From Synechococcus sp. M16CYN (GTDB lineage: Bacteria; Cyanobacteriota; Cyanobacteriia; PCC-6307; Cyanobiaceae): 64,000 nucleotides of DNA. The notes under the pieces were generated by a model. That model did no database searches. It was not told the DNA's origin and saw nothing but the letters and a program-made list of their open reading frames with translations. Both the position numbers and the translations under genes were made by a program. Position 1 is the first letter of the stretch, and the number at the start of each line of letters is the position of its first letter. Location of the stretch: positions 124,001-188,000 of the forward strand of contig NZ_AP029048.1 in the NCBI RefSeq assembly GCF_040371545.1, written 5' to 3'. Below are positions 3,207 through 64,000 of this stretch, in pieces.

Positions 3207-3444
3207 AATGATTGGATGCGGATTGAAGGAACAAGCAGGACATGCGATCGGCTGAGTCTCAAAGTGAGACGAGGCCGCGATTCCGATTCAATCCCGGGGG
3301 GAGAGAAAAACGTTACGCATTTGCCTCGGCAGGAATTACACGATCAGGCAAAATCAACTTTTGCCTGATCGTGGCCTACTGTCTCAGGCCGGGCACGTAC
3401 CCGAATTGGCTTTCGCCAGTTCACGATTGTAAATCAATTTTGTC
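3207..3444 (-). promoter_or_regulatory. Structured rplJ leader (probable L10-leader autoregulatory RNA)
   Basis: The 238-bp gap between rplA and rplJ holds a perfect 14-bp inverted repeat with a 5-nt loop at 3340-3372 (arm ACGATCAGGCAAAA). A second small hairpin, GTCTCA-CTT-TGAGAC, lies nearer the rplJ start, and a GGCC...GGCC hairpin lies upstream. In many bacteria the L10(L12)4 complex binds a leader at this position to repress its own synthesis. I see the hairpins directly; the regulatory role is inferred from position. No T tract follows the big hairpin, so it is not a plain terminator. Confidence 0.6.
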
Positions 3445-5766: not shown

Positions 5767-8508
5767 TTACAGACATTGCGGCTCGAATTGTAAGGGTTCG
5801 CTGTCCGAAATTCCAATACCAACCTTGATCCTACTAACTCCACTAAAGCGTTCTTCCAGTAACTGAGTTGCTAAAGGATTCTCCAACTGACGTCGCAGAA
5901 CTCTTTGCAAGGGCCTGGCACCATACTCAGGTTCATGGCCAAGACGGACTAAAGCTTCTGCAACACCCTCACCGATCTCCAGAGTCAAACCCTGTTCGGC
6001 CAAAAGGTTTTGCAAACCCTGGAGTTGTAATTGTGCGATTCGCACAAGATCAGCCACCCGCAGAGGACTGAATCGAATCACCTCATCGATTCGATTCAGG
6101 AACTCTGGTCGGAAATAACCGGCCAAAGCCTCATCCAGCTTGCTTTGAAGCTGATTGCTGTCGGAATCTATCTGACGAGCGTGCTCAAGAATTGCCGGAC
6201 TGGCAAGGTTACTGGTCATCACCACGACTGTATGTCGAAAGTCAACGGTGCGTCCTTGAGAATCCGTGAGACGACCATCGTCAAGCACCTGCAGCAACAG
6301 GTTGAACACATCCGGATGCGCTTTCTCTACCTCATCGAGTAAAAGAACTGCATAAGGACGGCGTCGCACTGCTTCAGTCAGTTGACCACCTTCTTCGTAG
6401 CCCACATACCCCGGAGGAGCACCAATCAAGCGAGCAACGGCGTTGCGCTCCATAAATTCGCTCATATCGAGGCGCACTAGGGCATCCTCTTCATCAAACA
6501 AAGAGGCAGCCAATGCCTTGGCTAATTCTGTTTTCCCTACACCTGTAGGGCCAAGGAATAGGAAGGAACCCACTGGTCGACGTGGATCTTTCATGCCCGC
6601 ACGGGCACGACGAATAGCTGCTGCTACGGCTGTGACAGCTTCTGCTTGTCCAATCACCCGTTTGCCAAGGTGATCTTCCAACGCCAGGAGCTTGCGCCGC
6701 TCTCCAGCCAACAATCTTTGCACGGGTATACCGGTCCATCGGGCTACAAGATCAGCGATGTCTCCCGCCTCAACCCGTTCTCTCAACAACGCTGTGCCGG
6801 CAGCCTGCGCCTTCAACTGACAAGCCTCCAGCTCCTCTCTCCGCTGTTGAACAGTCTGCAGTCGACCATACCGCAAACGCGCTGCCTCCTCCAGGCGACC
6901 TTCACACTCGGCCTCAGCAATAGCGCGGCGAAGATTTTTGTCTTGACGTAGTAGCTGACTGAGTTCCTCAAGCCGATCCCGCTCCTTCTGCCAACGACAA
7001 CGAAGATCATCAAAACGCTCCGCCATAGCCAAACGATTTCGTTGTAACTGAGTTTTTTCAGTATCCGAGGCCTGTTCTGCCGCCAATAGTGCTAACTCTA
7101 CCTGTCTAAGATCTGTTTCGGCTTCCTCAATCACCCGGGGCTTGGATGTGACTTCCATTTTTAGCTGAGCAGCCGCCTCATCGATCAAATCAATAGCTTT
7201 ATCTGGCAAACAACGATCGCTGATATAGCGATCTGCTAATCGGTTAGCCGCTTGAATCGCCTCATCCGTAATGGAGACGCCGTGATGCAGCTCATAGCGT
7301 TCCTTGAGACCACGCAAAATTTCAAGGCTTAAGAGTAAATCAGGTTCGCGAATTAGAACCTGCTGAAAGCGGCGGTTCAAAGCTGGATCCTTCTCTACCG
7401 TACGACGGTAGTCTTCTGGAGTCGTAGCGCCAATGCAACGCAGATCGCCTCGGGCCAAGGCCGGTTTTAACAGGCTGCCAGCATCCGCGGTGCTGCGATC
7501 ACTCCCCACCATAGTGTGCAGTTCATCCATGAAGAGAACTACACCTGAGTGAGATTGGCTTACCTCCTTTAGTACAGAGCGAAGTCGCTCCTCAAATTGG
7601 CCGCGGAATTTGGCTCCCGCAATCAGGGCGCCAAGATCTAGGGCGATCAGTCGCATTCCTTGGAGCGATTCCGGCACTTCACCAGACACAATGCGTTGGG
7701 CCAGTAGTTCTGCTATAGCTGTTTTGCCAACACCTGGGGCTCCAATCAATACCGGATTATTCTTGCTGCGACGCGACAACACCTTGATCAGATTACGGAT
7801 TTCATTATCACGACCAATCACGGGATCGAGACGACCGGCCTCAGCCTCCGTCGTGAGATCACGGCCAAAAGATTGAAGAGCGGTGGGCTCACTCTGAGCA
7901 TTAAGCTCCATACATAAGGGAGTCGCTGTCTGATCCAGTGATTTGACAGCAACCGCTCCAGCTCTGTTGCCAGGCGATAACTGGGTTTCTTGAGAAGGAT
8001 GTGATGCACGAACAATCCGGGAACTACACCTAGATGGTGGCCTGATCGGCGAAGATGGGGCCTGTAGCAGCTCCCCCAAGCGATCGGCTGAGAGCCCTAA
8101 CCCGGCGAATAGCTTGGCCCCTAGACGTGGATCAGTGCTAATCGCCATGAGCAGCTGAGGTATATCAATCTGTTCGCTCTTCCATTGCCGACACACTGCA
8201 TCAGCAGACTCAAGCAATCGCTCTAAGTCCTCACCAATAAAAAGATCCGTCCCTTGCCCTGGAGGCTGATCAGCCAGCATGTTTTCCAGACGATCCAATA
8301 AAGCGTCAGCGTCTAGCGGTAAATCACCCACCCAGTGCCGACAAGTTGGATCTGTAAATAAGACCTGAATCAGGTGTTCAACATCGAGTTGCTCATGGTG
8401 CCAGCGACGGGCAACGTCTTGGGCACTGAGTAGAAGATCCCATGCTGCATGACTAAAGCGATCAGGCTCGTGAGTAAGGCTGCCGTTAAAAGAAGGGGAC
8501 ACAATCAT
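5767..8508 (-). CDS. clpB: ClpB-type AAA+ disaggregase, ClpB2-like paralogue
   Basis: This 913-residue Hsp100 protein has two AAA+ modules and should act with DnaK to resolubilise protein aggregates. The N-terminal Clp domain spans residues ~15-150. Module 1 has Walker A GAPGVGKT (256-263) and Walker B LFMDELHT (~325). A coiled-coil middle domain rich in Glu/Arg/Leu runs ~455-580, which separates ClpB from ClpC. Module 2 has Walker A GPTGVGKT (652-660). The linker between N-domain and module 1 (residues ~150-215) is long and Ser/Pro rich. Cyanobacteria usually carry two ClpB paralogues; this location upstream of secE-nusG matches the less studied ClpB2, though I assign it from memory. It ends 70 bp before secE and may be co-transcribed. 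Confidence 0.9.
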
Positions 8509-19020: not shown

Positions 19021-19443
19021 TCAGATATTTAGCTCAGAAGCTTTAAACCAAAGATTGATTTCAAATTCAGCTGTTTCTACAGCATCAGACCCATGAATTA
19101 CGTTACGACTAATATTAATAGCCAAGTCTCCGCGAATAGTGCCAGGTTCAGCTTCTAAAGGTTTAGTAGCACCAATAATTTTACGAGCACTAGAAATTAT
19201 GCAATCACCCTCCCAAACCATCGCCACAACAGGACCAGAAGTAATTAAATCTACTAAACCAGCAAAAAAAGGGCGCCCTCTATGAACTTTATAATGGTTT
19301 TCCGCTAATTCTCGCGTAGGTATAAGTTGTTTTATGCCAACTAATTTAAAACCCTTACGTTCAAAACGTCCAATAATCTCACCAATTAAGCCCCTTTGAA
19401 CCCCATCAGGTTTAATTGCGATAAATGTGCGTTCAGAAGTCAT
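19021..19443 (-). CDS. ndk: Nucleoside diphosphate kinase, C-terminally short
   Basis: This 140-residue protein is NDK, which transfers gamma-phosphate between nucleoside triphosphates and diphosphates through a phosphohistidine. The active-site motif [20 protein letters not shown] holds the catalytic histidine. [19 protein letters not shown] and the Kpn-loop region [20 protein letters not shown] are intact. It ends WFKASELNI, about ten residues earlier than the usual ~150-residue cyanobacterial protein, so the last C-terminal segment is missing. Codon use is visibly more AT rich than in thiO or gatB. It should still be active because the catalytic core is complete. Confidence 0.95.
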
Positions 19444-36902: not shown

Positions 36903-38696
36903 GTGACCACTGCTGCAAAACGTCGCACTATACAGTTGCCCATCGACACCGATGTGCTTTGCTTCAGAGGATTGAGTCCAGAGCGCCATCGGTTTGAGTC
37001 GGAGTACGCTTTGGAGCGTGGGAGTACGGTTAACAGCGTTCTGTTTAAAGCTGGGAATGGAATCCCTGCGGTGCTCATACACCCTCCGGGAGCAGCCTAT
37101 AAAAGCGTCTTTTTGCCAGAACTCATCAACGTTCTTGGCGGCCAAGATAAGCCTCTTTTGGTGGTGGTGGGTCATGTGAACCCGAATCGGGTCGCTCTGC
37201 TCCGCAGCCTCGCTGAGATTTATTGCAGACTTGAGCTTGTTGCTTCCAATCCTGGCGCAAAGCTCCTGAAGGAGCTTTGGAGCAGGCGTAAACCTGCCCC
37301 TACCGGCCAGGAACCCGAGCAATCCTTACCCCCACCGCTGCCGCCACTTCGGATTATTCGTAAAGAGCAAACCCTCGCTTTGAGCAGCAGCCGTAAATTA
37401 CTGTTACTGCCAGCTCCAACACCACGCTGGCCTGGTGGTCTCTTGGCATTCGAGGAGAGCCTTGGCTTATTGATGAGTGGCAAACTTTTTAGTGCTCATT
37501 TATGTACAAAGACCTGGGCGGAAACAAGTCGCAACAGTACGGAGGAAGAACGTCGCCATTTTTACGATTGCTTAATAGCTCCGATGGCCCTTCAGGTAGA
37601 CAGTATCATCGAACGCCTGGAAGAATTGGATATCCGCACGCTAATTCCCGGTCATGGTCCAGCAATTGAGTCGAGCTGGCGCAGCTTGTTGAATGACTAC
37701 CGACGCTGGGGCGAAGGCCAACGCAGTGCCGACTTCAGGGTGGCTCTGCTTTTTGCGAGTGCTTACGGGCACACCGCAGCCATTGCAGATGCTCTGGCCC
37801 AGGGAGTTAACCGCACCGGCATTCGCGTGAATAGCCTCAATTGTGAGTTCACCTCTGCCGATGAACTAGTGAAAACTATCCAAGGAGCTGATGCAATCCT
37901 GATCGGTTCCCCTACGCTTGGAGGCCATGCACCTACCCCAATAGTGTCAGCTCTTGGCACGCTGCTGGCAGAGGGGGATCGCAGCAAACCGGTTGGTGTT
38001 TTTGGAAGCTACGGCTGGAGTGGCGAAGCAGTAGATCTTCTAGAAAGCAAACTTCGCGATGGTGGTTTCAACTTTGGATTCGATCCGATTCGAATCAAAT
38101 TCAGTCCCGATAAAGCAAAAGTCAGGGAGTTAGAGGAAACCGGCACTCGGTTTGGTCGACAGTTACTTCAAGCGCAAAATCGCTCTCAACGACGCAGTAC
38201 CGGAGGCCTTAGCGAAAGCCGCAGCGACCCTGCGATACTTGCTCTCGGACGCGTTCTCGGATCACTGTGCGTGCTGACCACAAAAAAAGATGGTCTCAGT
38301 GGGGCCATGGTCGCCAGTTGGGTCAGTCAAGCCAGCTTTACACCGCCGGGAATCACCGTAGCAGTAGCTAAAGATCGAGCCGTAGAATCGATGCTGCATA
38401 GAGAGGATTGTTTCGCGCTTAATGTACTGGCAGAGGGTCGAGAAATCGGCTTGATAAAGCAGTTCTTGCAACCGTTTAAGCCTGGTGCGGATCGATTCGC
38501 GGGCTTGAAGCTCAAGATTAGCCCTAGCGGACAGCCCTTACTACCAGACGCTTTGGCTTGGCTAGAGGTTTGCGTAAAACAACGTATGGAATGTGGAGAC
38601 CATTGGCTCATTTACGCCGAAGCCCTGCATGGTGGCCTGTTCGATGCCAAGGGCAGCACAGCCATTCATCAACGACGCAGCGGAGCTAATTACTAG
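36903..38696 (+). CDS. flv1: Flavodiiron protein, Flv1-type (diiron ligands substituted)
   Basis: This 597-residue protein is the Flv1-type partner of Flv3 in O2 photoreduction. Domain order is the same: beta-lactamase-like (1-~270), flavodoxin-like (from ALLFASAYGHTAAIADALAQ) and flavin reductase (from LGRVLGSLCVLTTKKDG). The diiron site is degenerate, as is typical for Flv1. HVNPNR (91-96) replaces HxExDH, TPRWPGG has Arg in place of a ligand His, and the aspartate position falls in LLMSGKL. Only GHGP is kept. An Arg/Pro-rich insert follows residue ~130. The start is a GTG at 36903 preceded by GAAGGAAG. It should be inactive alone and work as a heteromer with flv3. Confidence 0.9.
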   Translation: MTTAAKRRTIQLPIDTDVLCFRGLSPERHRFESEYALERGSTVNSVLFKAGNGIPAVLIHPPGAAYKSVFLPELINVLGGQDKPLLVVVGHVNPNRVALLRSLAEIYCRLELVASNPGAKLLKELWSRRKPAPTGQEPEQSLPPPLPPLRIIRKEQTLALSSSRKLLLLPAPTPRWPGGLLAFEESLGLLMSGKLFSAHLCTKTWAETSRNSTEEERRHFYDCLIAPMALQVDSIIERLEELDIRTLIPGHGPAIESSWRSLLNDYRRWGEGQRSADFRVALLFASAYGHTAAIADALAQGVNRTGIRVNSLNCEFTSADELVKTIQGADAILIGSPTLGGHAPTPIVSALGTLLAEGDRSKPVGVFGSYGWSGEAVDLLESKLRDGGFNFGFDPIRIKFSPDKAKVRELEETGTRFGRQLLQAQNRSQRRSTGGLSESRSDPAILALGRVLGSLCVLTTKKDGLSGAMVASWVSQASFTPPGITVAVAKDRAVESMLHREDCFALNVLAEGREIGLIKQFLQPFKPGADRFAGLKLKISPSGQPLLPDALAWLEVCVKQRMECGDHWLIYAEALHGGLFDAKGSTAIHQRRSGANY

Positions 38697-47674: not shown

Positions 47675-50186
47675 CCAATGAAATATTAAACAAGGCTACT
47701 GGAGACAGAATACTTGAAATTCTATATATGACCAACAATTATCGCAAATTAATCACACACCTCTCTAAATCGAAAAGCATTTCAAAACAAGAGATAAACT
47801 TAGAGTATGATAAGTAATCGAATTACTAGTTGTTTTTACTTCTATAACAACGATTAATACAATTGTATATATTACTAACAGATTAATTAATTGACTCATA
47901 ACTAAGTATGATGCTTTCGCTATCAATGACAACTAGCTTCTGTCGTTAAGATCAATTAACTAGTGGCCTTAATAGTGACATTATATAGCTCTAATTAGGA
48001 GTAAAAAGAAATGCAATTTACTTAGAATAAACTGTTAATGTAGGAATACTAAGTTTTAGAATAGAAATTTAACCATTCACTTTTTTTACTTTCTTACAAA
48101 GATAATCTTAAATATTTAATAAGTCGCTACAGATTTTAATAACGCGCTGTCATTATTAAGCATAGTGCTAATACAAATTAACTAAACCCCCATCGATAAT
48201 AGCAATAAAGTATTGATCTTTCAGGATTTTTTAATAGCTATTTTTAAATAATTACCATAATCATCAGAATTTTAACTAAATTTGACATTATTAAGAGGTT
48301 AAAAGTAACGGATATATAGAAAAAATAGAAATCACATGAGTCTAGGCTTTTAAAGACGACTAATCATCCAGTTCAATAATTTTATATTAGAGATTTGTAC
48401 GGTTACTCACAATTTATTGAAGTAAAATGTGATGATCTTATCTACAAGATAACTATAATAGTTTTCTTAATTATAACGAGCAGTATCGATAGATTAATAG
48501 ATTTCTAATCGTCAGTTATACTATAGACATCAATTATAAACTTAATGAAATTAAACTCATAACGGATATAATTAAAGCAATGATAATCTATATCATAAAA
48601 TTATTTACAATACACTATCAATAATAAATATTACAAAATTTACTAGAATTAAATCACAAGGTACGAATAATCAAAAAAATAATTCACAATTAGCAATTGT
48701 CAATAGAGCAGAAATAATTATAGTTTTTATTATTATTATTATTTTAGTTATTAATTTTAGTACCAATTATTTTTTATTTTCTAATAAGGTAATAAAATTA
48801 ACCACTACTTGAGCTTTATTAACTTTATTACCACCACAAATTTAGATCATATAAAACTTAATTACTTTCAACTTTATATTTTTAGTAATTAGATCACACT
48901 TTGAAATAAAGCTTTCAATAAGATAATAACTAATTAACTATAAATTCTAATAAAATAGTTTTGTTGATAACTATCATATCTGTAGCAGAATTAATGCTAT
49001 CGATAAAAGTTTATTTAGCAGAAAATTAATAAAAACTTTTTAGTTATTTTATAACTACTTAAATAAACCTAATATTCTTATATTAATATAACAGTAATAA
49101 TTGTTTTTGCCGTTAGTAAACTCTCTAACTATAAGTATATTCAAATCCATATTTTATATCAGAGCTAATAATAGCAAAAATACGTAAAATATAGATCTCA
49201 TAATGGAAATCATTAATATTAATAAGTCAGGATTTAGTTTAGTTCTAATTTTAGTAGAGAAGGTCAATCAAAATGTTGAAAACAATAATACCTAAAATTT
49301 TGGTATAAATATGTTCTTAGCAGTTTTATATTTATTCTAGAATTGATATCTAATTAAGTTAATATTCTAGTTATTTAGAGGTTTTGATTATATATAGTAC
49401 TATGTCAGATTTTTTTAATTAATATAATAATTGATTGAAAATATAAACGTAATTTTAGTCAAAAAACTATTAAACTGACTTGTTACTTAATAACAAATTA
49501 ATAAAAAAATTAAAAAGTTTAATTAATTATTATTAACTTAGCTAATTTTAAAGATATAAAAAATAGACATTTAAGTTTGCATAAAAGCATTAAATTTTTT
49601 CACTTTTAAAAGATTAAGATCATTTTTTTGAAATAAAAATCATTATTTAACGTATGTTTTTATAACTAAAAGATTATAATAACCTAATTAATAGAATCAG
49701 TTCAAATGCTTTTGCATGTAATTTTAATCATATATAAAATAGTATTTCAGCTTTGAAGAGATAAAAGATTACTACATTTCATATGTTTTAGGATAGTTAC
49801 AGGAACTTATATTTTATAGAAATTAATAATAGAAAACTATAATAGAATATATAATAAGATTAGATCATATTTTTAACTAATAAAATCATCAGGATTTGAA
49901 GACTATAATTGTTAAACAAATAATTAACTTTTGTAAATTATTCTATGTCAAATTTTATCGAAGAATAAATCTCAAAACTATTTAGGATAAATCTAATTAG
50001 ATATAATTATAAATATCGATTCATTAACATATGTTTGAAATTAATTGACTAGCCAATTTATATTCTTGATTGAGTAGAAAAAGTTCCTACATTGATATGC
50101 TTATCTTTTTGGTCAGAGTTTTAACGCAGAGAATTTAAGTAAAATGCACTTTTACTATATCCAGTTGGATAGTTGATAATGAATCT
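47675..50186. other. 2.5-kb AT-rich desert between dnaB and mnmG
   Basis: The region is extremely AT rich with frequent stops in all frames and no plausible gene. It contains short simple repeats, such as a TTA run near 48729-48745, and long A/T tracts. It gives way abruptly to normal-GC coding sequence at the mnmG ATG. Confidence 0.75.
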
Positions 50187-52121
50187 ATGAGCTCTACTAT
50201 CGTTCCCACTGAATCCTTCGATGTGATCGTCGTCGGGGCTGGACATGCCGGTTGTGAAGCAGCTATCACTACAGGGCGGCTTGGACTCAACACAGCGTTG
50301 TTTACCCTCAACCTTGATCGTGTCGCATGGCAACCCTGTAACCCATCGGTCGGTGGTCCAGCCAAAAGTCAGCTGGTGCACGAGGTCGATGCTCTTGGTG
50401 GCGTGATTGGCCGCCTTGCTGATGCCACCGCCATCCAAAAGCGCATTCTTAACGCCAGTCGCGGCCCAGCCGTTTGGGCATTACGCGCTCAAACTGATAA
50501 ACGCCTGTATTCCCATCAAATGCTGCAATTGCTGCAGCGCACTCCGAATCTTGCTCTGCGTGAAGCGATGATCACTGGCCTTGAAATCCAGAGCACAGGT
50601 GATCGGCTACGTGTTTCCGGCGTCCACACCTATTTCGGCAGTGTTTATAAAGCCGAAGCCGTAGTCCTCACCGCAGGCACATTCCTCGGTGGTCGCATCT
50701 GGGTAGGCCACCAATCCATGTCTGCAGGTCGTGCGGGAGAACAAGCAGCAGAAGGTTTAACAACGGCCCTACAACAGCTGGGCTTCCACACCGACCGGCT
50801 CAAAACTGGTACCCCAGCTCGTGTTGACCACCGTAGCATCGCCTTCGATCGGCTAGAAGAACAGGCCAGCGATGCCGCCGACCGTTTCTTCTCCTTCGAT
50901 CCGGCTGCCTGGGTAAGTGGCAAGCAAACAAGATGCCATATTACCCACACCACAGAAGCAACTCATCAGCTTATCCGCGATAATTTGCACCTCACTGCTA
51001 TCTATGGAGGTGTAATCGACAGCAAGGGGCCGCGTTACTGCCCCTCGATCGAAGACAAGATCGTGCGCTTTGCCGCTAAGGATAGCCATCAAATCTTCTT
51101 GGAACCAGAGGGCCGCGATACCCCGGAGATCTATGTACAGGGCCTTTCGACCGGCCTGCCGGAACCGATCCAACTGCAGTTGCTACGTACCCTTCCGGGG
51201 TTAGAGCAATGTGTGATGCTTAGACCGGGCTATTCTGTTGATTATGATTACTTACCTGCCACCCAACTCAAGCCATCTTTAGAAACCAAACGGGTGCGGG
51301 GGTTATTCAGCGCGGGCCAACTTAATGGCACTACTGGCTATGAGGAAGCTGCAGCTCAAGGACTCGTGGCCGGCATCAACTCTGCCCGCCTGATCGGCGG
51401 TGAGGAACCAGTGCATTTCCCTCGCGAGAGTAGTTACATCGGCACCATGATAGACGATCTCGTGAACCAAGACCTACGCGAGCCCTATCGGGTACTTACC
51501 AGTCGTAGTGAATACCGATTAACCTTGCGTGGAGACAATGCTGACCGTCGTCTCACTCCTTTAGGCAATAGATTAGGTCTGATTGACGACCGACGCTGGC
51601 AGTTGTTTAAAAACAAGCTGCAAGCTATAGAGGCTGAAAAGCAACGGCTTGCAACGACGCGGCTCAAGGTAAGTGATCAAGCAGCGTCGGCTGTGGAGCA
51701 GGAAACGGGCGCCTCAATCAAAGGTTCAGTTACTCTAGCGGATCTTTTACGCCGACCGGGTGTCCATGCTGCCGATCTTGTGCGCCATGGTTTGGCTGAC
51801 GCAAATCTATCTCTTCCCATAAGAGAAGGTGCCGAAATCGACATCAAGTACAGCGGTTATCTACGACGCCAACAACAACAAATTGAACGGGTACAACGCC
51901 AAAGTCAACGTAAACTTCCTACTGATTTAGACTACGAAAATATCAGCACTCTATCCCGCGAAGCACGGGAAAAACTTGCTTGCATTCAGCCTAGCACCCT
52001 GGGACAAGCATCGCATATTCCAGGAGTCAGCCAGGCTGACATCACAGCTCTGTTGATGTGGCTAGAGCTTCAGAAACGCCGGACCCTTGCCCCCACTGCA
52101 CATTTCGATAGCGTTGCTTAG
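50187..52121 (+). CDS. mnmG: tRNA uridine-5-carboxymethylaminomethyl modification enzyme MnmG (GidA)
   Basis: This 644-residue FAD protein works with MnmE to modify U34 in the wobble position of several tRNAs. The FAD site is [20 protein letters not shown] (residues ~9-28). Further motifs are [53 protein letters not shown] and [20 protein letters not shown]. Length is normal. The ATG at 50187 sits right at a sharp compositional edge; its promoter must lie in the AT-rich desert upstream. Confidence 0.96.
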
Positions 52122-52756
52122 CATTGCGTGAGGAACAAATGGTCATGGGTTGCGTTTCCAGTAATGAGCAAATGGAATCAAGTCACTACATGGCGAAAAC
52201 CAGCCGCTCTATACCGATTGGGTTGACGGCGGGCAGATCTAGCCCAGCAACAGCGACGCAACTGGGGTCAGAAATATTCGCTTATGAAATTCCCTAGCCA
52301 ATGCCTTTTATGAAACAGCTAACACTCCCTCATAATACTGCTTTATGACGGCAGTAGAACCTGATGCTTTCCAAGTAAACGAGCTTAACTCCAAAACCGA
52401 TTCTGTTCTTTTTGTCAACAGTGTGCACCGGGCGATTTGAACATTTCATACCGTCGAGGTTAAGACTATTCCATCAATAGCCATAGAGACTTTATTGGTT
52501 GAAAAGACATCATCTTGGCCCCAGGATATAGAGATGCTTCCAGCTCAACCGCATCATTCAAAGATTCAGACAAACAACTCAACAAAGTAATTCTAAAAAT
52601 CGACCGGACTTTATGTTTCCGCTAGCACGAACAAAAGCTTTGAGAAAAGTCGAAAACTGTAAACTCACCGAGGAATCCAATGCCGCTACCCGCTAAAACG
52701 ACCAGCGTTTTGCTTCAGCTCACTGGGGGAGTATTCTGAGTAGAATATCTAAGTTA
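52122..52756. other. Spacer with gene debris between mnmG and the chorismate lyase
   Basis: This 635-bp region has near-normal GC but no intact gene. Its first ~190 bp hold a stop-interrupted frame (separate entry). The rest carries only short frames, for example a 30-codon frame near 52345 that I could not identify. Confidence 0.5.
52128..52313 (+). pseudogene. Small gene interrupted by an in-frame TGA
   Basis: A GTG seven bases past the mnmG stop opens a frame reading RNKWSWVAFPVMSKWN and then WRKPAALYRLG. A TGA follows at 52224-52226, and the same frame resumes as RRADLAQQQRRNWGQKYS up to a TGA at 52311. The Trp/Arg-rich composition on both sides of the stop looks like one small basic protein of ~61 residues. 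A shorter ATG frame overlaps in another phase but looks less protein-like. It is probably a recently inactivated small conserved gene. Confidence 0.4.
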
Positions 52757-53338
52757 TTGCTCTCGCCCCGTCCTCTTTGGCAGGCTTCCACAGCAACGTT
52801 ATTAGACGCTAGTGGGCCGCGGCAACTGCCGGGAGGTTGGCGGCTCATGTTACTGGGGGATGGCAGCCCAACGCGTCATCTCCGTCTTCTCACAGGTCAA
52901 CCGGTCACCGTTGATCTGATTGCCATGGAAACAGAGCAAAATGGTCATCCTTATACTCCCGTTGAGGTGCATGAATTACAGGCCCCTTTATTGCGCCGCC
53001 AGGTGTGGCTTGTTTGCGGAGGAATACCACTGGCTTGGGCTGAAAGCTGGTGGAATCAAACTGAAGCAGAATTGCACTTGCAAGACCGTAACCAACCAAT
53101 TTGGTCAAATCTCACCCGAGGAAGATCAGAACTGTTTCGCCAAGTAGATGGACTTGCTCTTGTGGAAGCGGATTGGCTACAACAGACGTTTGGCCGCTGC
53201 GGTCCATTTTGGAGTCGCCACTATCGCTTCTTTCGAAGCGGAGTAGCCCTCACGGTAATCCGTGAGGTTTTTAGTCCACAACTAGAAAACTGGCTAGGCT
53301 CAACCTTAGCCCTTCGCCAAAAGCTGGCTACAAAGTAA
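52757..53338 (+). CDS. Chorismate lyase-family protein (cyanobacterial type)
   Basis: This 193-residue protein resembles the cyanobacterial chorismate lyase family (DUF98-type), which makes 4-hydroxybenzoate from chorismate for plastoquinone. Supporting segments are GGWRLMLLGDGSPTRHLRLL, a central VWLVCGGIPLAWAESWW and DGLALVEADWLQQTFGRCGP, with the conserved Arg/Glu pattern of the fold. The start is a TTG at 52757 (LLSPRPLWQAS); no in-frame ATG or GTG lies nearby. The gene is intact and of normal GC although it faces a 3.5-kb desert. Confidence 0.8.
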   Translation: MLSPRPLWQASTATLLDASGPRQLPGGWRLMLLGDGSPTRHLRLLTGQPVTVDLIAMETEQNGHPYTPVEVHELQAPLLRRQVWLVCGGIPLAWAESWWNQTEAELHLQDRNQPIWSNLTRGRSELFRQVDGLALVEADWLQQTFGRCGPFWSRHYRFFRSGVALTVIREVFSPQLENWLGSTLALRQKLATK

Positions 53339-56300
53339 TTAATTTATTAATAAATCCTCAGCCATGTAAAATAGCTTTTGACAGTCTATATTAGCTTAAA
53401 AAGATATTAAAAACATTTTTTATTTGCAATTTATGCAGGCGAACTTCCTTCAAACTTCCTTTATTTCTAATTCATAAAAGCAAATGACTAAAAGGCTACA
53501 CAGATATCTTGAATCATTGACTCACTGTGATCGATAATTACACAATGACTACAGATAGCTGCAACTGATTGTCTTTCGAGATCTACAACAATGACAAGAA
53601 TAGAATCGCGATCTAGTCATCGGAATCGACAGCAAATTTTAGCTAGTAAAATTAACCAAATCTAGTGAGGCACTGATCTAGGAATTACGGCGCAGGCAAG
53701 TGACTAACTATTCAAATACGAGGATAATTATAGAGACGAATTAGGGTAGACTAGGAATATCTTGAAAGATAGTTAGTAAATAAAAATAATCTCAGAGTAG
53801 ATCTATCCATAATTTTATTAAATCTTTTATCTTTTCTCTAGAGACAAGAAAGAAAAGCCCAATTACCTTGGGATTATTTATTTTAGGTATCTTGGCAAAG
53901 ATACTATAAATAAAGTCAGCGCAAATTTAGAATAAAGATAAAGTACGAAGTTTTCAGATAAAGTCTGGAACTAAAATTTTTCCTAAAAATTAAACAAGGG
54001 AAGAAACTTTATAAAACACTATGAACAAACTTTTAGATGTTGACTAAATTATATCAAGCAAACTTAAATATATAATCTTTTGCAATTTTGATAAGTTCTG
54101 GATATATAAACTAAACCAGTAATTAAAAGAATCGATCGATAAAGTAAGAGCCTTAACTTTAGGAAATAAGACTTTAGATTTTAGTTTCTTATACCTAGAA
54201 AATGAACATTTTATATTTAAAAATAATGTTATCTACATTACGAAGGATTGAAAATAAAATAATTAAAATGTATAATAATTTTGCTCGGCAAAAAAGACAA
54301 AAAATCTAATTAAAGATCTATATCATAGTATATAATTTTATTATTTTAGAAAGTACAAGTTTTTCCCTAAAAATTTCTTAACTCTCTCCCATATAAATGC
54401 TGACCTGAAAAAAACTTGTACAACTTGATTCTAAATTTATTTGAATAAATAGGATTTTTAAAAATAACATTAAGCAGTATAAATACTCTAGTATTTTGTA
54501 TTTTAATAGCGATTTTTTGGTAAAATTAAAAAATATTAGATTAATTAAATAAGTACCGAATTATAATTTAAAGTCTCCAAGAAAAGTGATTTGAGATAAC
54601 TAAATGATATTAGAGGTCTTATTTCTAGAAGGCTCATAAATAATAACAAATAATATGGGCTAAAAACTTGCTATAAAGGTTAAATAAATATTCTTGAAAT
54701 AAGAGGACTAATGCTAATAAAATAATCTCTAACAAAGATAAGTACAATTAAAGATACTTAGCAGATTAGTTGTAACCAAACATAATTCCGTGAATTACTA
54801 AATTTTTAGTCTAACTTATATTAGTGGAAACTTTTTTCCTAACCTATTGAGAAATGAAGTATTTAAAAGTGATTTTATTCTCAATATTGTCTGAAAAATT
54901 AAAGGAAAAGCAAGCAAAATTAGTTGGAAGTACATCACTTTTACAAATAATCTGATTTAGTAGAATAGAGATTACAATTCTTGTAATTAGACTCATTAAA
55001 ATAGTCCTAATTTTTGATAAAAAACTTACAATTAATGAAGAGTTAAATAATGTATAAATGGATAACCAAGTCTCCCAATTCCATTTGAGCTAACCCTGCT
55101 TTTAAGTAATCTTAATCAAAATATTAGGCACAAAGATACATTATCTGCTAACTAAAACAATCTAGATATAATTAGTATTAATTTAACTTATCGAACAAAA
55201 AATAAAATGCAGGAAGAACTTAGCATAAGTAACTTAGGTTAAACTCGATCTGCACATTCTAACATTCTCTGGAATAACTAATTCTAATGTCTATTAGTTT
55301 GAATTTATGTATGGTAAACCAAGAATCTATGGATACGCTAGATCTGTAGAGTAAATATAATACCAATATTTTAGATCAAAAGCCTTTCAAGCTATAGGAA
55401 TTTTGAGAGAAAATGAGAGAAGAAAAGTACTTTTCTTTAGTCATTTGACTTCAATTAAGTTACTGTATTAAAAAGTCAAAAGGTAATTTACATCAAAAGA
55501 GATACCTAACTTATTCAAAGTAGTTATAAAAAAACTAGTACTAGTAAGCTGCATCAAAATAAAACTTAATTATTAAGACATCCTTTTCCAGATTAAGGCT
55601 AAAAGGAATTAAGTTTTTGTGCTTATCAAGGATGATAGCTTTAGCAAATTTTTCAATATCATAATATTTTTGCTCCTTTATTCTAGATTTTTTTCAGCAT
55701 CTGTAGCTCAATATAATGTAAATATGCAGTAATATGTTTGTGGCAATGTTTCTATGCTTTGAATCTTCTTTAGGATCATACTTCGTTAAAAAATAGAGAT
55801 ATTGAAATATTTACTTCCTTTGAGTTCAGCTAAAGTATCAAATAAATACTTCCGCTAATATTCTGAACAAGTAATTGCTATTATCTCAGCCTCACAATCT
55901 TCCCTTTGAAAAAATTGCTATTGAAACTATCAAATGCCATAAGGTTAAAATCCGTTTGCCTACTTAAGCATCATAAAATTTCTTTAGATTTTCAGGAAAT
56001 AAGTTAATGCATTAAATATCTACACTTTTCTATTCTAACATTGCTTTGAACTTCTTGGGCAATAACTATCTAAATAGCAGATTTATTATCTTCTAACTAT
56101 TTAGCTTTTCTAACAGAATTTCTGTAACTAGATGACTATAAAACTGCCCTATTGTGAGATACAACACCTCATTATTATTAATACCTTAAAATAAGCAAAT
56201 GCTTTTGATTTTTTGATGAAATAGTCTGAATTCTTATAACTTATTCATTTAAGCTGATTTTTTAGATCAGCTATATCTTTGACTATTTGACTTTCATTAG

Positions 56301-56892
56301 TTTTACTATTATTCAATTTCAAGTCGATGAATTCCAGTGATTTATCTCTTCCTGAAATCACTTCTAAATCAAGTTATTTACATTACTATTGACAACCTTA
56401 GTGTATTTAATCTCATCCGTTTTCATCAAACTATTTGATATTTATCAATCAATTCTCCTTATTATATTATGTTCATCTATATCTCGTTAAATAGTAAGGC
56501 ATCTATTTAGTATTGATTTGAATGATTTTTAATCCACCGGGTGGTCTAAATGAACGCTGGCATTATTTATATGACTTCTGAGTAAAATAGAGCTAATCAC
56601 TTAGAATTGCTAAAAAATTTGCTTTCAACATGCTTGGACTAAAATGATTAATACATCACAAAACTTTATTAAAAGAGCCATTACTTATCGATACACTCAC
56701 CTTTGCAGCCTCTCTCCCTACCTTATTTTTTGATCATGCTAACTGCTAGCAAAATAAAATTTGACTCATCATATCGATTTAGCATAGGTTTCCAATAATT
56801 TCTATGTTCTCTAGATTACAGTTAGATAAGGAAGGATGTGATCTATAGTAATAGCATTACTTAAGAACGAATGTTTCTAGACGTATATCTAG
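53339..56892. other. 3.55-kb AT-rich desert downstream of the chorismate lyase
   Basis: This is the largest non-coding block. No plausible gene exists on either strand. Local structure includes a decayed terminator-like hairpin at 53858-53872, the 18-bp perfect palindrome AAGAAAAGTACTTTTCTT at 55420-55437, and a small GC-richer patch near 56533-56560 with CCACC/GGTGG pairing. The patch may be a gene relic. No tRNA or known cyanobacterial small RNA was recognised. Confidence 0.75.
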
Positions 56893-57138
56893 TTGAGAAA
56901 TGAACCAACGCGACTCTGGCTCCTCCTCAAATACCCGCTCCAAACTGCTGTTATGAATATTATTGTCAGTATTTTAGCATCAGAAACACTGATGCTGTTT
57001 TTGTATTCAGCCTTAATCCAGCCAATTACTGCTGATATTTCCTCAACGTCTATACAAACTCTTGTTCGATTAGCATTACTCTATCTCTACTTGGCTTGGT
57101 ATTTAATCCACCACTTGATAGCTTTCATGGCATCCTAA
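56893..57138 (+). CDS. Small hypothetical membrane protein
   Basis: This 81-residue frame encodes a protein with two clear hydrophobic helices: ~20-44 (VMNIIVSILASETLMLFLYS) and ~58-79 (LVRLALLYLYLAWYLIHHLI). The composition is richer in GC than the desert before it. The frame begins with a TTG directly after a stop codon. An ATG at codon 21 (56953) is an alternative start, but it would remove the conserved-looking LWLLLKYPLQTAV segment. No family is recognised. A hairpin with a short T tract follows at 57191-57215. It is likely a real gene, possibly close to decay. Confidence 0.5.
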   Translation: MRNEPTRLWLLLKYPLQTAVMNIIVSILASETLMLFLYSALIQPITADISSTSIQTLVRLALLYLYLAWYLIHHLIAFMAS

Positions 57139-57190
57139 TTCAAACTTTTGGTGATTACTAGATCACGGTTATCCAATCAAACATAATGCC

Positions 57191-57215
57191 GAGCTAAATC
57201 AATTAGCTCTGTTTT
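57191..57215 (+). terminator. Hairpin after the small membrane-protein gene
   Basis: GAGCTAA (57191-57197) pairs with TTAGCTC (57203-57209) around ATCAA, followed by TGTTTT. It lies 52 bp after the stop and looks like a weak intrinsic terminator. Confidence 0.5.
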
Positions 57216-57717
57216 GCGTAAGTTCATATTTAGCAATAGGGGAAACGGAAACAGTGCTTAGGTCTGGTATTGTGCTAGATCAGCCAGCGTCTATTTGATA
57301 TTTTCTCTATTAAGAAACTATTCTTGGATACTCCTGACGAGCATCTTAATTACTATAGTGGCTAACGCTTAACCCTTCTCGATGGTTAAATCAATTAGAT
57401 GCTACTTGAAAACTGCAATTTGTGTAGACTCCGTTAACCCCTCATGCCACATCTAGTTTACAAAAGATTTAACCTCAACTGTTGTTTAGATAATTACCCA
57501 CAATGCTGCGCCACTTGATGGATACGAATGATTTTATGCTGATAAATGCCTTTAATCACCTGATTAAAGGCATTTATCAGCTCTGGATTTCTGTTTTCCC
57601 ACTAGCAACTGGTACCTCGACAAGCTCTACCCAAACTGCTCTTGTTTTACGACTGTTTTAAATCCTCTCTAGAAATAGTTAAGGCTTTTACTCTAGCAAC
57701 GAAATCTAGGAGATATG
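57216..57717. other. Spacer with a large palindrome between two convergent small genes
   Basis: These ~500 bp carry no gene. The notable element is the 44-bp palindrome at 57538-57581 (separate entry). Confidence 0.6.
57538..57581. repeat. 44-bp palindrome with perfect 21-bp arms
   Basis: Positions 57538-57558 are the exact reverse complement of 57561-57581, with only CC between them. The arm begins GCTGATAAATGCC. There is no flanking T tract on either strand and no second copy was noticed. A perfect repeat this long is far beyond chance in neutral decaying DNA. Confidence 0.9.
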
Positions 57718-58206
57718 TTAAGTAGAGCGGCGGCTAGACCGAGGTAAGCCCCGCTGAAAGAAAGGTGGGAGGACTTGAGACTTCACACCAGAAGGCGATC
57801 GTTGACCTAATGCACGCTGTTGACGCTGCAACCTAAAGAGTTCTTCATCGGGCCAGTCGTCAAATGACAATGACGTTGATGGTGCCAGTAGGACCGAGGA
57901 ATCCGATTTTCGTCGTTGAGATCGACGAGAGATGGCCTGGAGCGGGCGTTTCGCTCTGCTAAGTGGTCGCGGCGAAGCCTCTTGCCAAGGTTCACGCCAA
58001 CCGTCCTCTTCTTCTAATAGCCAATCAACCTTGCCCCCAACCCACCGGCCAAAAGAGTCGAGATTCAATCTCGGGCGTCGTTGCCCTGGACGCCGACCGG
58101 CAAATCCATCGATTAATTGACGGCCTGTCCCTAACCAGCGATGCAAAAAACGATCTCTAAGATCATGGGGTCGTTCTGGACGGTATCGTTCGTATCGTTC
58201 CTCCAT
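57718..58206 (-). CDS. Conserved picocyanobacterial hypothetical, Arg-rich
   Basis: This 162-residue protein is very basic and soluble. Recognisable blocks are RDRFLHRWLGTGRQLIDGF near the N-terminus and FGRWVGGKVDWLLEEEDGW in the middle, which I recall as conserved in marine Synechococcus proteins of unknown function. A long Arg/Ser-rich segment follows (KRPLQAISRRSQRRK) and the tail is basic. It may bind nucleic acid or anionic membrane, but this is only inferred from charge. The ATG at 58206 is clear. Confidence 0.7.
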   Translation of the reverse strand: MEERYERYRPERPHDLRDRFLHRWLGTGRQLIDGFAGRRPGQRRPRLNLDSFGRWVGGKVDWLLEEEDGWREPWQEASPRPLSRAKRPLQAISRRSQRRKSDSSVLLAPSTSLSFDDWPDEELFRLQRQQRALGQRSPSGVKSQVLPPFFQRGLPRSSRRST

Positions 58207-58727
58207 TTGAAGAGGCTCTGTTTTAGAATAAAATTAGGAATACTAGCTAGGTATGACGGCTCCACAGAGCTAGGATAATGACCAAAGAGCTTAGACACCG
58301 AAGTCCCCACAGTAGGTGTTTAATTGCGACAAAAGCAGTGACTGATCACATCGCGAGTGCGATGGCAGCAAGGGGACCGTTGTTTGCACAATATTGAGTC
58401 CGGTTGTCCGGGATGTAGATGGAACGCTGCGGCCTTGCGTATCGTCATCATAATAAATCCGCCTAAGCTACAGACCGTAACGATTCCGATATTGATCGAC
58501 TTTGCCGTTACAATTCTTACTCGGCGAAAACCGGATGGTACTCAATTCATCCGTTGTGCTCTTCACCCCAACGTAACTATACGTTACAGACTAAACCTAT
58601 GTACGGCGTTATGAACGATTCGCCTAATGAAGCAGTGACAGTAAGGACCGCAAGAGCTCACGAGAAAGGTAAATTCACGGCGCCCTATGGCGGTCAGGCA
58701 GACTCGTCCATGCTCTGAAAGCTGGTG
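58207..58727. other. Spacer with possible gene debris upstream of the DUF4864-like gene
   Basis: The GC content here is near that of the genes, unlike the AT-rich deserts, yet there is no full gene. Short frames include one at 58278 of 36 codons (MTKELRHRSPHSRCL...), one of 85 codons at 58357-58614 starting with GTG, and one ending just before the next gene (58601-58719, MYGVMNDSPNEAV...). None has a known domain. This looks like recently inactivated coding sequence. Confidence 0.4.
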
Positions 58728-61376
<2,649 letters not shown>

Positions 61377-61700
61377 ACGATTTAACCAGGTGATGGGTTT
61401 CAATCAGATTCAAAAATGGACATAGCCAACAAAAGGATTGGTTACAGCATCGAGCGGTTTGTATTCACATCGGGAATACTCTCAACTCAGATTTCACTAT
61501 GAAATTAACGGCGTCACTGAAACCATGGTTCAGCTCAAGATACATCATTGGATCAAAACCGACTGCGGTCGTGCCAAACTGGCTGAACTTCAGCGACGCC
61601 GAGGCGCCGGTGCTCGATTTCACCTGATTTGGTTTATCCTGATTGCGTCAGCTAGGGATTGGTCTCTTCCCAGTCCGAATCGCTTCCCCTAACGGGTTAG
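61377..61700. other. Spacer downstream of ligA with one uncertain frame
   Basis: A plus-strand frame (61438-61692, TTG start) encodes ~84 residues with near-normal GC, including MVQLKIHHWIKTDCGRAKLA. I cannot identify it and treat it as a possible remnant. CTAAC/GTTAG pairing at 61689-61700 borders the stop of the TVP38-type gene but lacks a T tract. Confidence 0.35.
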
Positions 61701-62321
61701 TTAGAGATCAACCTCCTCGTTAATTAATGCTTTCTGAGCCGCTCGACCCACAAGCCAGACTGCTGTTACTGTGGCCATTACCCCCACAATTCTGAAAGTC
61801 CACGCCCACGCTGACACTTCTGGGGCCAGCATCTCGCTAGGGCTGGTTCTTCCTCCTGTCAAGGCGCCTAAAGTGCAAAACATCACCGTGCTAGGTAAAA
61901 TTGCTACTAAGCTCAGGTTGTAGTCACGTAGGCTGACATTACTAAGGCCATAAGCTAGGTTTAGCAAAGAGAAGGAAAATGCTGGCGACAATCGCGTTAG
62001 CACGACGAGCCTGAGTCCTTCGCTACTTACCGCTTTTTCGACAGCTTGTAACTTGGGAAAATGCTTCAAACGTTCATTTGCCCAACCTTTCAACCAACAG
62101 CGACTTAAAAAGAAGGAGGCCTCAGCCCCTAAGCAGGCGCCGATAAACACAATTAGACTACCCCACCAGGTGCCATAAAGCACTCCCGCAAGTATAGAGG
62201 CCCAGACCCCTGGTAGGAGTAGTGTTACCCACAAGGCGTAGAGTGGAATGAATATGGCCACTCCTAAGGGAGAATGTAGAAACGGTAAGGCTGCGTCAAG
62301 CCAATGGGACCAATCAAGCAT
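61701..62321 (-). CDS. TVP38/TMEM64-family membrane protein
   Basis: This 206-residue polytopic protein belongs to the TVP38/TMEM64 (SNARE-associated, DedA-like) family, thought to act in lipid scrambling or membrane homeostasis. Family motifs include LLPGVWASILAGVLYGTWWG, GAEASFFLSRCWLKGW and LVVLTRLSPAFSFSLLNLAY. About five transmembrane spans are visible. The ATG at 62321 directly follows the stop of the upstream permease gene (TGAGATG). A longer frame needs a TTG start inside that gene. It may be co-transcribed with the ABC permeases. Confidence 0.85.
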   Translation of the reverse strand: MLDWSHWLDAALPFLHSPLGVAIFIPLYALWVTLLLPGVWASILAGVLYGTWWGSLIVFIGACLGAEASFFLSRCWLKGWANERLKHFPKLQAVEKAVSSEGLRLVVLTRLSPAFSFSLLNLAYGLSNVSLRDYNLSLVAILPSTVMFCTLGALTGGRTSPSEMLAPEVSAWAWTFRIVGVMATVTAVWLVGRAAQKALINEEVDL

Positions 62322-62322
62322 C

Positions 62323-63114
62323 TCAGCTGGAAGCAGAAGTGTAATGGCGCAAAGCAAACAGCCAGAACGCTCGCGTTGAAAGGAAAAAGATACAAGCTAG
62401 GGCCAAACTTAGTAGCAGCATCGGTGTTGCTACAACGCGACCGAGTAGCACCTCCGCTGGCACCGTGGTAAGAAAAGCCACCGGCAGCACAAACGTAAAC
62501 AGCAAACGTAGTGAAACCGGATACGCACTAATTGGGTAACGCCCAGACGCCAAGAGCGTCCTTAGAACTTCAGTAGCATTCCACATTTTTACAAACCAAA
62601 TGCTGGTGGCCGCAACTAAAAACCAAATTGAGTACAGTATTGTCGTGCCAGATAACAGCATCAGGACTACAGTTAGCAACTCCTGTACCGACGCTTCTGC
62701 GCCTGACTGGAGTCCGCCCCAGCCGACTAATAACAAGCCTAAGGCAATTTCAGGAAACCCGCTAAGTGCCATCAAACGGAGAGATAGCCACAGCTGGCTA
62801 TCAACTGGCTTCAATAAAACAAAATCTAGTGTACCTTCCCTTACATAAGTGACAATTGAACCGAGGTTGGGACGTAACCAGGCGTTTGCTATACCATCAA
62901 GGGTTGTGTAGAAACCCTGCACCACCAGTGCTTCGGACCAATTCCAACCGCCTAGAGAATACCCAGGTCCAAAAAACAGCGACAACGTAAACAAGCTGCC
63001 CCCAAGGCTCAGGGCAATCGCCACAAGCTCAATCAACAGATTAACCTGATATTCTGCTTGCATCGCTAAAGCTGTACCCCAGAAACAAATTAGCGTTTGC
63101 CAATAACGCCTCAT
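62323..63114 (-). CDS. ABC-2 family permease (second of a pair)
   Basis: This 263-residue permease belongs to the PF06182-like ABC-2 family. Six hydrophobic spans are visible, with the characteristic GSIVTYVREGTLDFVLLKPV followed by QLWLSLRLMALSGFPEIALG. The substrate is unknown; relatives are annotated as multidrug or export systems. The ATG at 63114 (MRRYWQTLICFWGTALAMQA) overlaps the stop of the upstream permease gene by one base (TAATG), which fixes the start over a longer frame. Confidence 0.88.
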   Translation of the reverse strand: MRRYWQTLICFWGTALAMQAEYQVNLLIELVAIALSLGGSLFTLSLFFGPGYSLGGWNWSEALVVQGFYTTLDGIANAWLRPNLGSIVTYVREGTLDFVLLKPVDSQLWLSLRLMALSGFPEIALGLLLVGWGGLQSGAEASVQELLTVVLMLLSGTTILYSIWFLVAATSIWFVKMWNATEVLRTLLASGRYPISAYPVSLRLLFTFVLPVAFLTTVPAEVLLGRVVATPMLLLSLALACIFFLSTRAFWLFALRHYTSASS

Positions 63115-63911
63115 TACGCCCCCATCGCGCTGTAGCGGCGCACACCAGCCCGCCAAAGGCATAACGCCAACGGTAGGAGTAGTGTAATCCAAATCAGCTG
63201 AGCACAAAATCCGGCCATCCAATCCACTGGTCGCTGAGCCAAAACACGCGCTGGAAAGTCGATCAGATAGGGGAATGGCGTCCACCGCGCTACTGCTTGC
63301 ATTGCAGGGGGGAAAGCGGTCAATGGCGTTAATAAGCCTGATAGAAACACAAACGGAATAAACAACAGCCGCTCTAGAGCACTAGCTTTCTCGCTCCAGA
63401 AACAAAGTGCCGCAATCAGGCTCTGCAGCAGAAAAGCAATTGCAAAAGCCATCCATGTTGCCAACCAGGCGAGAAGAAGTGTTCCTGGTCCAGGCAGCCA
63501 TAATACTTTTGGCTGAATTAATAAGAACAACGCAGCAATTGCTGCCGCAAATGGTAATCTAGTGAACTGCTCACTAAGATGAGCTGCCACATAACGCCAA
63601 AGCGGATGTAAGGGTTGCAAAAGATAGGGCGATAAGCGTCCTAATAAGACATCCTCTTCAAAGGCGTAAACCACCCAAACAACGGAAAACTGGCGTACCA
63701 AAAAAGCACTGAGAAAATATCGATCTAGGGCTACGTCATTCATATCAAGTGTGGTGCGGATGCCACTGCTACTCCAAACGCTGAGCATGATCAATGGCAA
63801 TACACCAGATAGCGACCACAACGCAATCTCAGCGCGATACTCGAGCATGTGAGCATACTGTGATCCCAGTATTGCCGCTACAATTCGACAGTTGAGGCCA
63901 AACAAACGCAT
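63114..63911 (-). CDS. ABC-2 family permease (first of a pair)
   Basis: This 265-residue protein is the companion permease, with about six transmembrane helices. Typical segments are EYRAEIALWSLSGVLPLIML, FEEDVLLGRLSPYLLQPLHP and FVFLSGLLTPLTAFPPAMQA. The two permeases probably form a heterodimer driven by the ATPase encoded just upstream. Its ATG overlaps the ATPase stop by one base (TAATG), so the three genes form a tightly coupled operon. Confidence 0.88.
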   Translation of the reverse strand: MRLFGLNCRIVAAILGSQYAHMLEYRAEIALWSLSGVLPLIMLSVWSSSGIRTTLDMNDVALDRYFLSAFLVRQFSVVWVVYAFEEDVLLGRLSPYLLQPLHPLWRYVAAHLSEQFTRLPFAAAIAALFLLIQPKVLWLPGPGTLLLAWLATWMAFAIAFLLQSLIAALCFWSEKASALERLLFIPFVFLSGLLTPLTAFPPAMQAVARWTPFPYLIDFPARVLAQRPVDWMAGFCAQLIWITLLLPLALCLWRAGVRRYSAMGA

Positions 63912-64000
63912 TACAGCTTCCCTTGGCGGAACAGTTTGCCAATTAAGGTTTCAATCGGCGGATCGTGGACCTCCAGATCAAGAACGGGGAGGCGTTCCAG
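63911..64000 (-). CDS. ABC transporter ATP-binding subunit, C-terminal end (runs off the window)
   Basis: The last 29 codons read LERLPVLDLEVHDPPIETLI and end LFRQGKL, then a TAA that overlaps the ATG of the first permease. This matches the C-terminus of ABC ATPases that serve paired ABC-2 permeases (VxDPPIExxI is typical). The nucleotide-binding motifs lie outside the window. Confidence 0.75.
   Translation of the reverse strand: MERLPVLDLEVHDPPIETLIGKLFRQGKL

What the first reader, a model, noticed from the sequence alone, without database searches (positions are those of the whole stretch)
57538..57581. 44-bp palindrome with perfect 21-bp arms and a 2-nt centre
Arms are identical over 21 bases in a spacer between two convergent small genes. 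No T tract is present, so it is not a standard terminator. Such a palindrome would be lost quickly without selection or recent origin. Possibilities: bidirectional terminator, cruciform, protein site, or the footprint of a mobile element.
Basis: seen in the sequence. Interest (0 to 1): 0.55.

Follow-up and report, generated by a model that had tools for sequence, protein, structure and literature searches.

The report
Copying-slip palindrome in a reduced symbiont
This perfect 44-base mirror sequence is probably not a control element but a scar left when DNA copying briefly switched templates, one of a set of such scars in a shrinking cyanobacterial symbiont genome that also lacks two DNA-trimming enzymes found in its relatives.

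Summary
The palindrome is real: 21-bp perfect arms and a 2-nt centre at 57538-57581, far beyond chance. No second palindromic copy was found in its genome or in 33 other congeneric genomes; it has no T tract and no Rfam match. It lies in 4.4 kb of AT-rich spacer between chorismate lyase (+) and a small conserved gene (-). The genome (1.94 Mb plus 17 kb) fits, by size, CregCyn, the cyanobacterial symbiont of the dinoflagellate Citharistes regius. It is one of a class: 644 kb sampled holds 12 perfect palindromes with arms of 17 bp or more, all different, against 0 in 800 kb of seven congeners. Some lie inside conserved genes; 10 could be aligned with relatives, none shows an indel, and in the clearest (proB, guanylate kinase) one arm looks overwritten by the reverse complement of the other, the signature of quasipalindrome template switching. 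That asymmetry test leans on proB (p 0.003 with it, 0.07 without). xseA (ExoVII) and recJ are missing here but present in all 18 other high-quality congeners. Best reading: a replication template-switch scar, probably neutral, made frequent by loss of single-strand exonucleases. For this very palindrome, and for the cause, the evidence is by class and correlation only.

The parts
57538..57558 (+). left arm of the perfect palindrome (21 bp)
57559..57560 (.). 2-nt centre (CC)
57561..57581 (-). right arm of the perfect palindrome (21 bp)
   Evidence: 94-nt stretches of either strand fold with one long hairpin, -35.7 (+) and -33.5 (-) kcal/mol, z -7.9 and -6.4
53339..57717. 4.4 kb AT-rich spacer that holds the palindrome, without an ORF of 90 codons by the rule; about 0.6 to 1.1 kb with small genes in sister genomes
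57718..58206 (-). conserved gene of unknown function (162 aa), 137 nt right of the palindrome, convergent
   Evidence: no Pfam or NCBIfam match
52757..53338 (+). chorismate lyase, nearest supported gene on the left
6068..6099 (.). another perfect palindrome, inside a conserved gene (12-bp arms, 8-nt loop); no arm asymmetry (9 and 10 of 12)
3339..3373. another perfect palindrome (15-bp arms, 5-nt loop), noncoding by the rule

Best explanation
The palindrome is a mutational scar. During replication a nascent 3' end folded back (or crossed to the sister strand), copied one arm of an imperfect inverted repeat as template for the other, and returned, leaving a perfect palindrome in one step (quasipalindrome template switching). 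It persists because the spacer looks like decayed, unselected DNA of a symbiont undergoing genome reduction. Such scars are frequent in this lineage, probably because it has lost the single-strand exonucleases ExoVII (xseA) and RecJ that would trim misfolded ends. Shown: the palindrome; the class excess; lineage specificity of the aligned coding members; absence of indels in them; absence of xseA and recJ by profile search. Suggested, with proB and guanylate kinase as the clearest cases: overwriting of one arm. Inferred: that this noncoding palindrome arose in the same way, and that the exonuclease loss is the cause.
For: (1) Class of different sequences: 644 kb of this genome holds 12 perfect inverted repeats with arms >=17 (loop <=12) against 0 in 800 kb of seven congeners (p 6e-5 by length share) and 0 in 517 kb of 34 named relatives' loci. 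(2) In ORFs: arms >=15, 6 in 453 kb against 0 in 712 kb (p 0.003). (3) Alignment of 10 of 16 coding cases (6 had no orthologue held): 0 of 10 has an indel; summed arm asymmetry exceeds random placements (p 0.0045, 0.0035). Clearest: guanylate kinase, arms 9/15 and 14/15 identical to the closest sister; proB, 14/20 and 4/20. (4) Perfection bias: noncoding 18-bp arms with 0, 1, 2, 3 mismatches: 8, 3, 5, 5 observed against 0, 0, 1.0, 1.7 expected. (5) xseA and recJ not found here, found in 18 of 18 other high-quality congeners; at the recJ position a colinear remnant lies between conserved neighbours. (6) Literature: mutations at quasipalindromes universally perfect the palindrome, one arm templating the other (PMC6357072, Discussion read); 3'-5' single-strand exonucleases are credited with preventing them in E. 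coli (PMC3820800, passage).
Against: No homologous sequence was found for this spacer, so the earlier state of this very palindrome cannot be shown. The asymmetry test rests heavily on proB: without it p is 0.07 for 9 cases, and 0.10 for the 4 others with arms >=15; 4 of 10 cases differ by at most one position between arms. The better arm, too, matches relatives a little less than the better arm of random placements (0.74 against 0.79). In guanylate kinase 1 of 9 sisters favours the other arm, by one position. Short-armed cases could be ordinary point mutations. The noncoding excess is modest once the amount of noncoding DNA is allowed for (arms >=15: 13 in 191 kb against 1 in 88 kb, p 0.04), and noncoding DNA here is AT-richer (G+C 0.37 against 0.54 in the first 20 control stretches). 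Relatives show some too (3 with arms >=15 in 517 kb). RecJ is a 5'-3' enzyme (recalled), so its link is indirect; a RecB-like protein, another suppressor in E. coli, is still present. SbcD was not found in this genome, but nor in the four congeners listed, so it does not explain the difference.
Confidence: 0.66

Rival explanations
1. A functional bidirectional transcription terminator or 3'-end stabiliser between convergent genes.
For: It lies between convergent genes, 137 nt downstream of the 57718-58206 gene, and folds strongly as RNA on both strands.
Against: No T tract on either side; 4.2 kb from the left gene. In the 11 sister stretches no perfect arm exceeds 11, and the two of 11 lie outside this spacer. 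Both noncoding palindromes with arms >=13 in 800 kb of congeners carry T tracts, whereas 5 of 20 do here.
Confidence: 0.17
2. A mobile-element footprint or a protein-binding operator.
For: Perfect inverted symmetry.
Against: The 18-bp arm core with up to 3 mismatches occurs 5 times in the genome: 2 are the palindrome itself, 3 are single arms with 3 mismatches. In 33 other congeners, 1 single-arm hit with 2 mismatches. Class members are all different. Flanking direct repeats were not sought specifically.
Confidence: 0.05
3. An amplification or assembly artefact: if the genome is CregCyn, its DNA was amplified from one host cell (PMC11150560, sections 5 and 15 read).
For: Whole-genome amplification can make inverted chimeras (recalled).
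Against: Gene order is kept on both sides, whereas a chimera would be expected to join distant or inverted flanks; 10 of 10 aligned coding cases have no indel. That the ORFs are open is by construction of the ORF rule and is no evidence. Reads were not available.
Confidence: 0.08

Closest known systems
Quasipalindrome-associated template-switch mutation (E. coli thyA hotspot; Discussion of PMC6357072 read)
   Same: One arm templates the other; the result is a perfected palindrome.
   Different: Here the events would be fixed, many, and spread over a natural genome, some in conserved genes; arms reach 25 bp in the sample.
Long intergenic palindromes of Blochmannia ant symbionts (PMC3017870, section 12 and passages read)
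   Same: Reduced symbiont genomes with unusually long palindromes, nearly all at least partly intergenic.
   Different: Those are 62-136 bp and were sought with up to 3 mismatches; the authors wrote that they would likely decay without selection. No arm-overwriting test appears in what I read.
Coding palindromes of nematomorph mitochondrial genes (PMC6649704, passages read)
   Same: Perfect inverted repeats inside conserved coding sequence; template switching proposed.
   Different: Mitochondrial, arms up to 142 bp.
Intrinsic terminators
   Same: Hairpin between convergent genes.
   Different: No T tract; the 21-bp stem is long and not G+C-rich.

Membership tests
quasipalindrome template-switch mutation | Product is a perfect or perfected inverted repeat with a short spacer | tested here: met
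   21-bp perfect arms, 2-nt centre; perfection bias across the class
quasipalindrome template-switch mutation | Derived state: relatives lack the palindrome at the same place | tested here: inconclusive
   Met for the 10 aligned coding members. For this palindrome no homologous spacer was found, so its absence from 33 congeners does not show that it is derived at this place
quasipalindrome template-switch mutation | One arm ancestral, the other overwritten by its reverse complement | tested here: inconclusive
   Not testable for this palindrome. For the class: asymmetry p 0.0035 over 10 coding cases, 0.07 without proB; clear in proB and guanylate kinase, differences of at most one in 4 of 10
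quasipalindrome template-switch mutation | Suppressor nucleases weakened (supporting, not defining) | tested here: met
   xseA and recJ not found, found in 18 of 18 other high-quality congeners; recB-like present; mismatch repair not tested
intrinsic terminator | T tract directly after the stem | tested here: not met
   not listed by the terminator scan
MITE or other repeat family | Several related copies in the genome | tested here: not met
   (18-bp core, up to 3 mismatches); window only
Rfam RNA family | Match to a covariance model | tested here: not met
   0 matches up to E 1 in 50000-64000

The most novel reading that the evidence does not exclude
This symbiont is a natural template-switch mutator: losing RecJ and ExoVII lets fold-back copying go uncorrected, so palindromes accumulate over the whole genome and even rewrite short stretches of conserved proteins. 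The same process would explain the long palindromes of other reduced symbionts such as Blochmannia without selection.
Probability: 0.37. Interest if true: 0.7.

Novelty: new member of a known kind. Interest (0 to 1): 0.5.

Why it matters
The mechanism is known from laboratory reporters, but a natural genome in which its products seem to have piled up, with relatives in which both nucleases are present, gives a way to see its long-term effect. It offers a testable mutational explanation for long palindromes in reduced symbionts that were thought to need selection, and candidate cases in which several bases of a conserved gene changed in one event.

Tried and rejected
Rfam: one match in the whole window at the gathering score, Cyano-1 at 2038-2105, unrelated. 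SbcD loss as the distinguishing factor: rejected. Remnants of the small gene that sisters carry in this spacer: tblastn of the longest ORFs of five sister spacers (up to E 5) found none (in two of the five, L024 and L026, the longest ORF was not that gene). The test that sister sites are more self-complementary than random places (0 of 20000 draws for arms >=11) is biased, because the sites were chosen for being palindromic here and relatives share most bases; I do not lean on it. Coding and noncoding were split by a crude longest-ORF rule (90 codons), not by annotation. Of 17 cases counted as coding, 16 lie wholly in one ORF and entered. In one search the sister with the highest protein identity was used, so proB is scored against another sister (11 and 1 of 20) than the closest genome (14 and 4). 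The seven control congeners are unnamed; that they are free-living is presumed from genome size. OmCyn, the other dinoflagellate symbiont, was not identified among the held genomes. Taxonomy look-ups found no entry for CregCyn or OmCyn; the identification rests on chromosome and plasmid size against PMC11150560 (abstract, sections 5, 8, 10, 15 and passages read) and is not confirmed by name. That G006 is Synechococcus sp. CC9902 is recalled from its genome size.

No paper on palindromes in this symbiont came up in the listings; the genome paper uses palindrom-, hairpin, intergenic and pseudogene 0 times in its main text, and 'inverted repeat' twice, for the rRNA repeat.

Full report
Observation. 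The palindrome is as described: arms 57538-57558 and 57561-57581, 21 bp, perfect, with a 2-nt centre. The next longest perfect arm in the window is 15 bp (loops up to 12), and 30 Markov resamples of the window never gave more than 12. As RNA either strand makes one long hairpin. No T tract follows on either side, the terminator scan does not list it, and no Rfam family matches in 50000-64000 up to E 1.

Setting. The window is bases 124001-188000 of a 1,940,073-base contig; the assembly has 1,957,399 bases in two contigs, so the second has about 17 kb. This fits CregCyn, the symbiont of Citharistes regius: a circular chromosome of 1.94 Mb and a plasmid of about 17 kb, closely related to clade IV Synechococcus, with a protein repertoire a quarter to a third smaller than closely related free-living strains (PMC11150560, sections read). 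The identification is by size, not by name. The gene order mnmG, chorismate lyase, small gene (-), small gene (+), ligA is kept in 10 of the 11 sister stretches fetched (the eleventh, L032, gave no match). In sisters the spacer between chorismate lyase and the (-) gene is about 0.6 to 1.1 kb by match ends and, by inspection, carries one or two small genes; here it is 4.4 kb, mostly AT-rich, without an ORF of 90 codons, and no trace of the sister gene was found. The palindrome sits 137 nt from the (-) gene and 4.2 kb from chorismate lyase.

Not a repeat family. The 18-bp core of the arm with up to 3 mismatches occurs 5 times in the genome: the two arms, and three single arms with 3 mismatches. 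In 34 congeneric genomes, this one included, with up to 2 mismatches, one other genome has a single arm.

A genome-wide class. Scanning 644 kb of this genome (window plus 29 stretches of 20 kb) for perfect inverted repeats with loops up to 12 gave 28 with arms of 13 or more, 19 with 15 or more and 12 with 17 or more, up to 25 bp; all 28 differ and no two share an 11-mer in their arms. In 800 kb of seven unnamed congeners (40 stretches) the numbers are 5, 1 and 0; in 517 kb from 34 named loci around the same gene they are 7, 3 and 0; and in the 11 sister stretches (190 kb) no arm exceeds 11. For arms of 17 or more the difference has p 6e-5 against the 800 kb, by share of length. Split by crude ORF calling, arms of 15 or more number 13 in 191 kb noncoding against 1 in 88 kb (p 0.04) and 6 in 453 kb coding against 0 in 712 kb (p 0.003); for coding arms of 13 or more it is 8 against 3 (p 0.02). 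The noncoding difference is therefore modest once the amount of noncoding DNA is allowed for, although five Markov resamples of each of this genome's noncoding segments of 100 bases or more gave none above 13. Both noncoding cases in the congeners carry T tracts and look like terminators; 5 of 20 do here, by a lenient rule.

Perfection. In this genome's noncoding segments, places with 18-bp arms and 0, 1, 2, 3, 4, 5 mismatches number 8, 3, 5, 5, 54, 199, against 0, 0, 1.0, 1.7, 27.7, 146.3 in resamples. The excess is greatest at zero mismatches, as expected if palindromes are made perfect in one step and then decay, or are re-perfected.

How they arise. Palindromes inside genes can be aligned with relatives. 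Of 16 coding cases with arms of 11 or more, 10 had an orthologue among the sequences held. None of the 10 shows an indel. Against the closest sister (L116, L125, L134, L142, L098 from G006): guanylate kinase, 14 of 15 identical in one arm and 9 of 15 in the other; proB, 14 and 4 of 20; threonine dehydratase, 11 and 7 of 15; TamB, 10 and 6 of 17; RNB-domain protein, 9 and 8 of 16 (families, proB by its AA-kinase and PUA domains). Over all sisters aligned, the same arm is the better one in 8 of 9 for guanylate kinase (the ninth is reversed by one position), 9 of 9 for threonine dehydratase, 8 of 8 for proB, 9 of 9 for the RNB protein (11-12 against 8-10 of 16 outside the closest sister) and 1 of 1 for TamB; sisters are related to each other, so these are not independent. 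Summed over the 10 cases, one sister each, the asymmetry exceeds random placements in the same genes (p 0.0045, 0.0035 on repeating it; for the 5 with arms of 15 or more 0.0026 and 0.0035). But the result rests heavily on proB: without it p is 0.07 for 9 cases and 0.10 for the 4 long-armed ones; leaving out any other single case keeps p at 0.016 or less. Four of 10 cases differ by at most one position. The better arm matches relatives at 0.74, near the gene average of 0.72 but below the better arm of random placements (0.79); the worse arm at 0.50 against 0.65. This is the direction that copying one arm from the other predicts, whereas gradual substitution or selection for pairing should change both arms; with so few cases I take it as support, not proof.

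Why here. The models for ExoVII large subunit (xseA) and RecJ find nothing in this genome at E 0.001, but both are found in 18 of 18 other genomes of the genus that are at least 90% complete and at most 5% contaminated (30 of 34 overall for each; the other misses are genomes 53-83% complete). At the recJ position, between conserved neighbours, 2.0 kb of DNA remains with colinear weak matches to RecJ (best E 2e-6 against that 2-kb stretch alone), which I read as a pseudogene. The xseA position was not located. A RecB-like protein is found in 32 of 34 genomes of the genus, this one included, below the model's cut-off in all. SbcD is above cut-off in 15 of 121 family members; there is no match in this genome or in the four congeners listed (30 genomes without a match were not listed). 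In E. coli, 3'-5' single-strand exonucleases and mismatch repair are credited with limiting quasipalindrome mutations (PMC3820800, passages), and recB mutants have very high template-switch rates (PMC6357072, Discussion). The particular parts of ExoI, ExoVII and RecJ are recalled; of ExoI I saw only the title of a cited paper.

Known parallels. Blochmannia genomes hold 6 to 20 long palindromes, all but two at least partly intergenic, which the authors thought would decay without selection (PMC3017870, section 12). Nematomorph mitochondria hold perfect palindromes in conserved genes, with template switching proposed (PMC6649704, passages). RNA gene histories contain mutation patterns consistent with template switching making and keeping stems (PMC8794818, abstract).

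Verdict. The palindrome itself is most likely a neutral template-switch scar. Its own origin cannot be shown directly because no homologous spacer was found; the claim rests on its class. A role in transcript ends remains possible as a by-product. The wider observation, a reduced symbiont with a load of such palindromes and two nucleases missing, is the part worth following.

Noticed in passing
G000:C1:1267250-1269230 (L173:7250-9230): Probable recJ pseudogene: 2.0 kb between conserved neighbours with colinear weak matches to RecJ.
   Followed up: yes
L091:11350-11393, L081:11334-11372, L079:2998-3033, L088:10404-10442, L084:19843-19876, L087:7593-7623: Perfect palindromes with 15-20 bp arms inside proB, tamB, a glycosyltransferase-like gene, an RNB-domain gene, guanylate kinase and threonine dehydratase. 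The L079 gene was not aligned, and its name is by eye.
   Followed up: partly
window 18001-24000, 35001-37000, 48001-50000, 53001-57000: Blocks of low G+C (about 19-39%) in a window otherwise near 50%; 47933-50120 holds no ORF of 40 codons. The first two blocks were not examined for genes.
   Followed up: no
L066:8632-8661 and L068:8638-8667: Two metagenome-assembled relatives share a palindrome with 15-bp arms and a paired difference near the centre (G-C against A-T), possibly a maintained or repeatedly perfected site.
   Followed up: no
L037:6525-6550 and L038:5363-5388: The same 11-bp-arm hairpin with the same flanks occurs twice in opposite orientation, a probable repeated element of this genome.
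   Followed up: no
window 2038-2105: Cyano-1 RNA (Rfam RF01701) above the gathering score.
   Followed up: no
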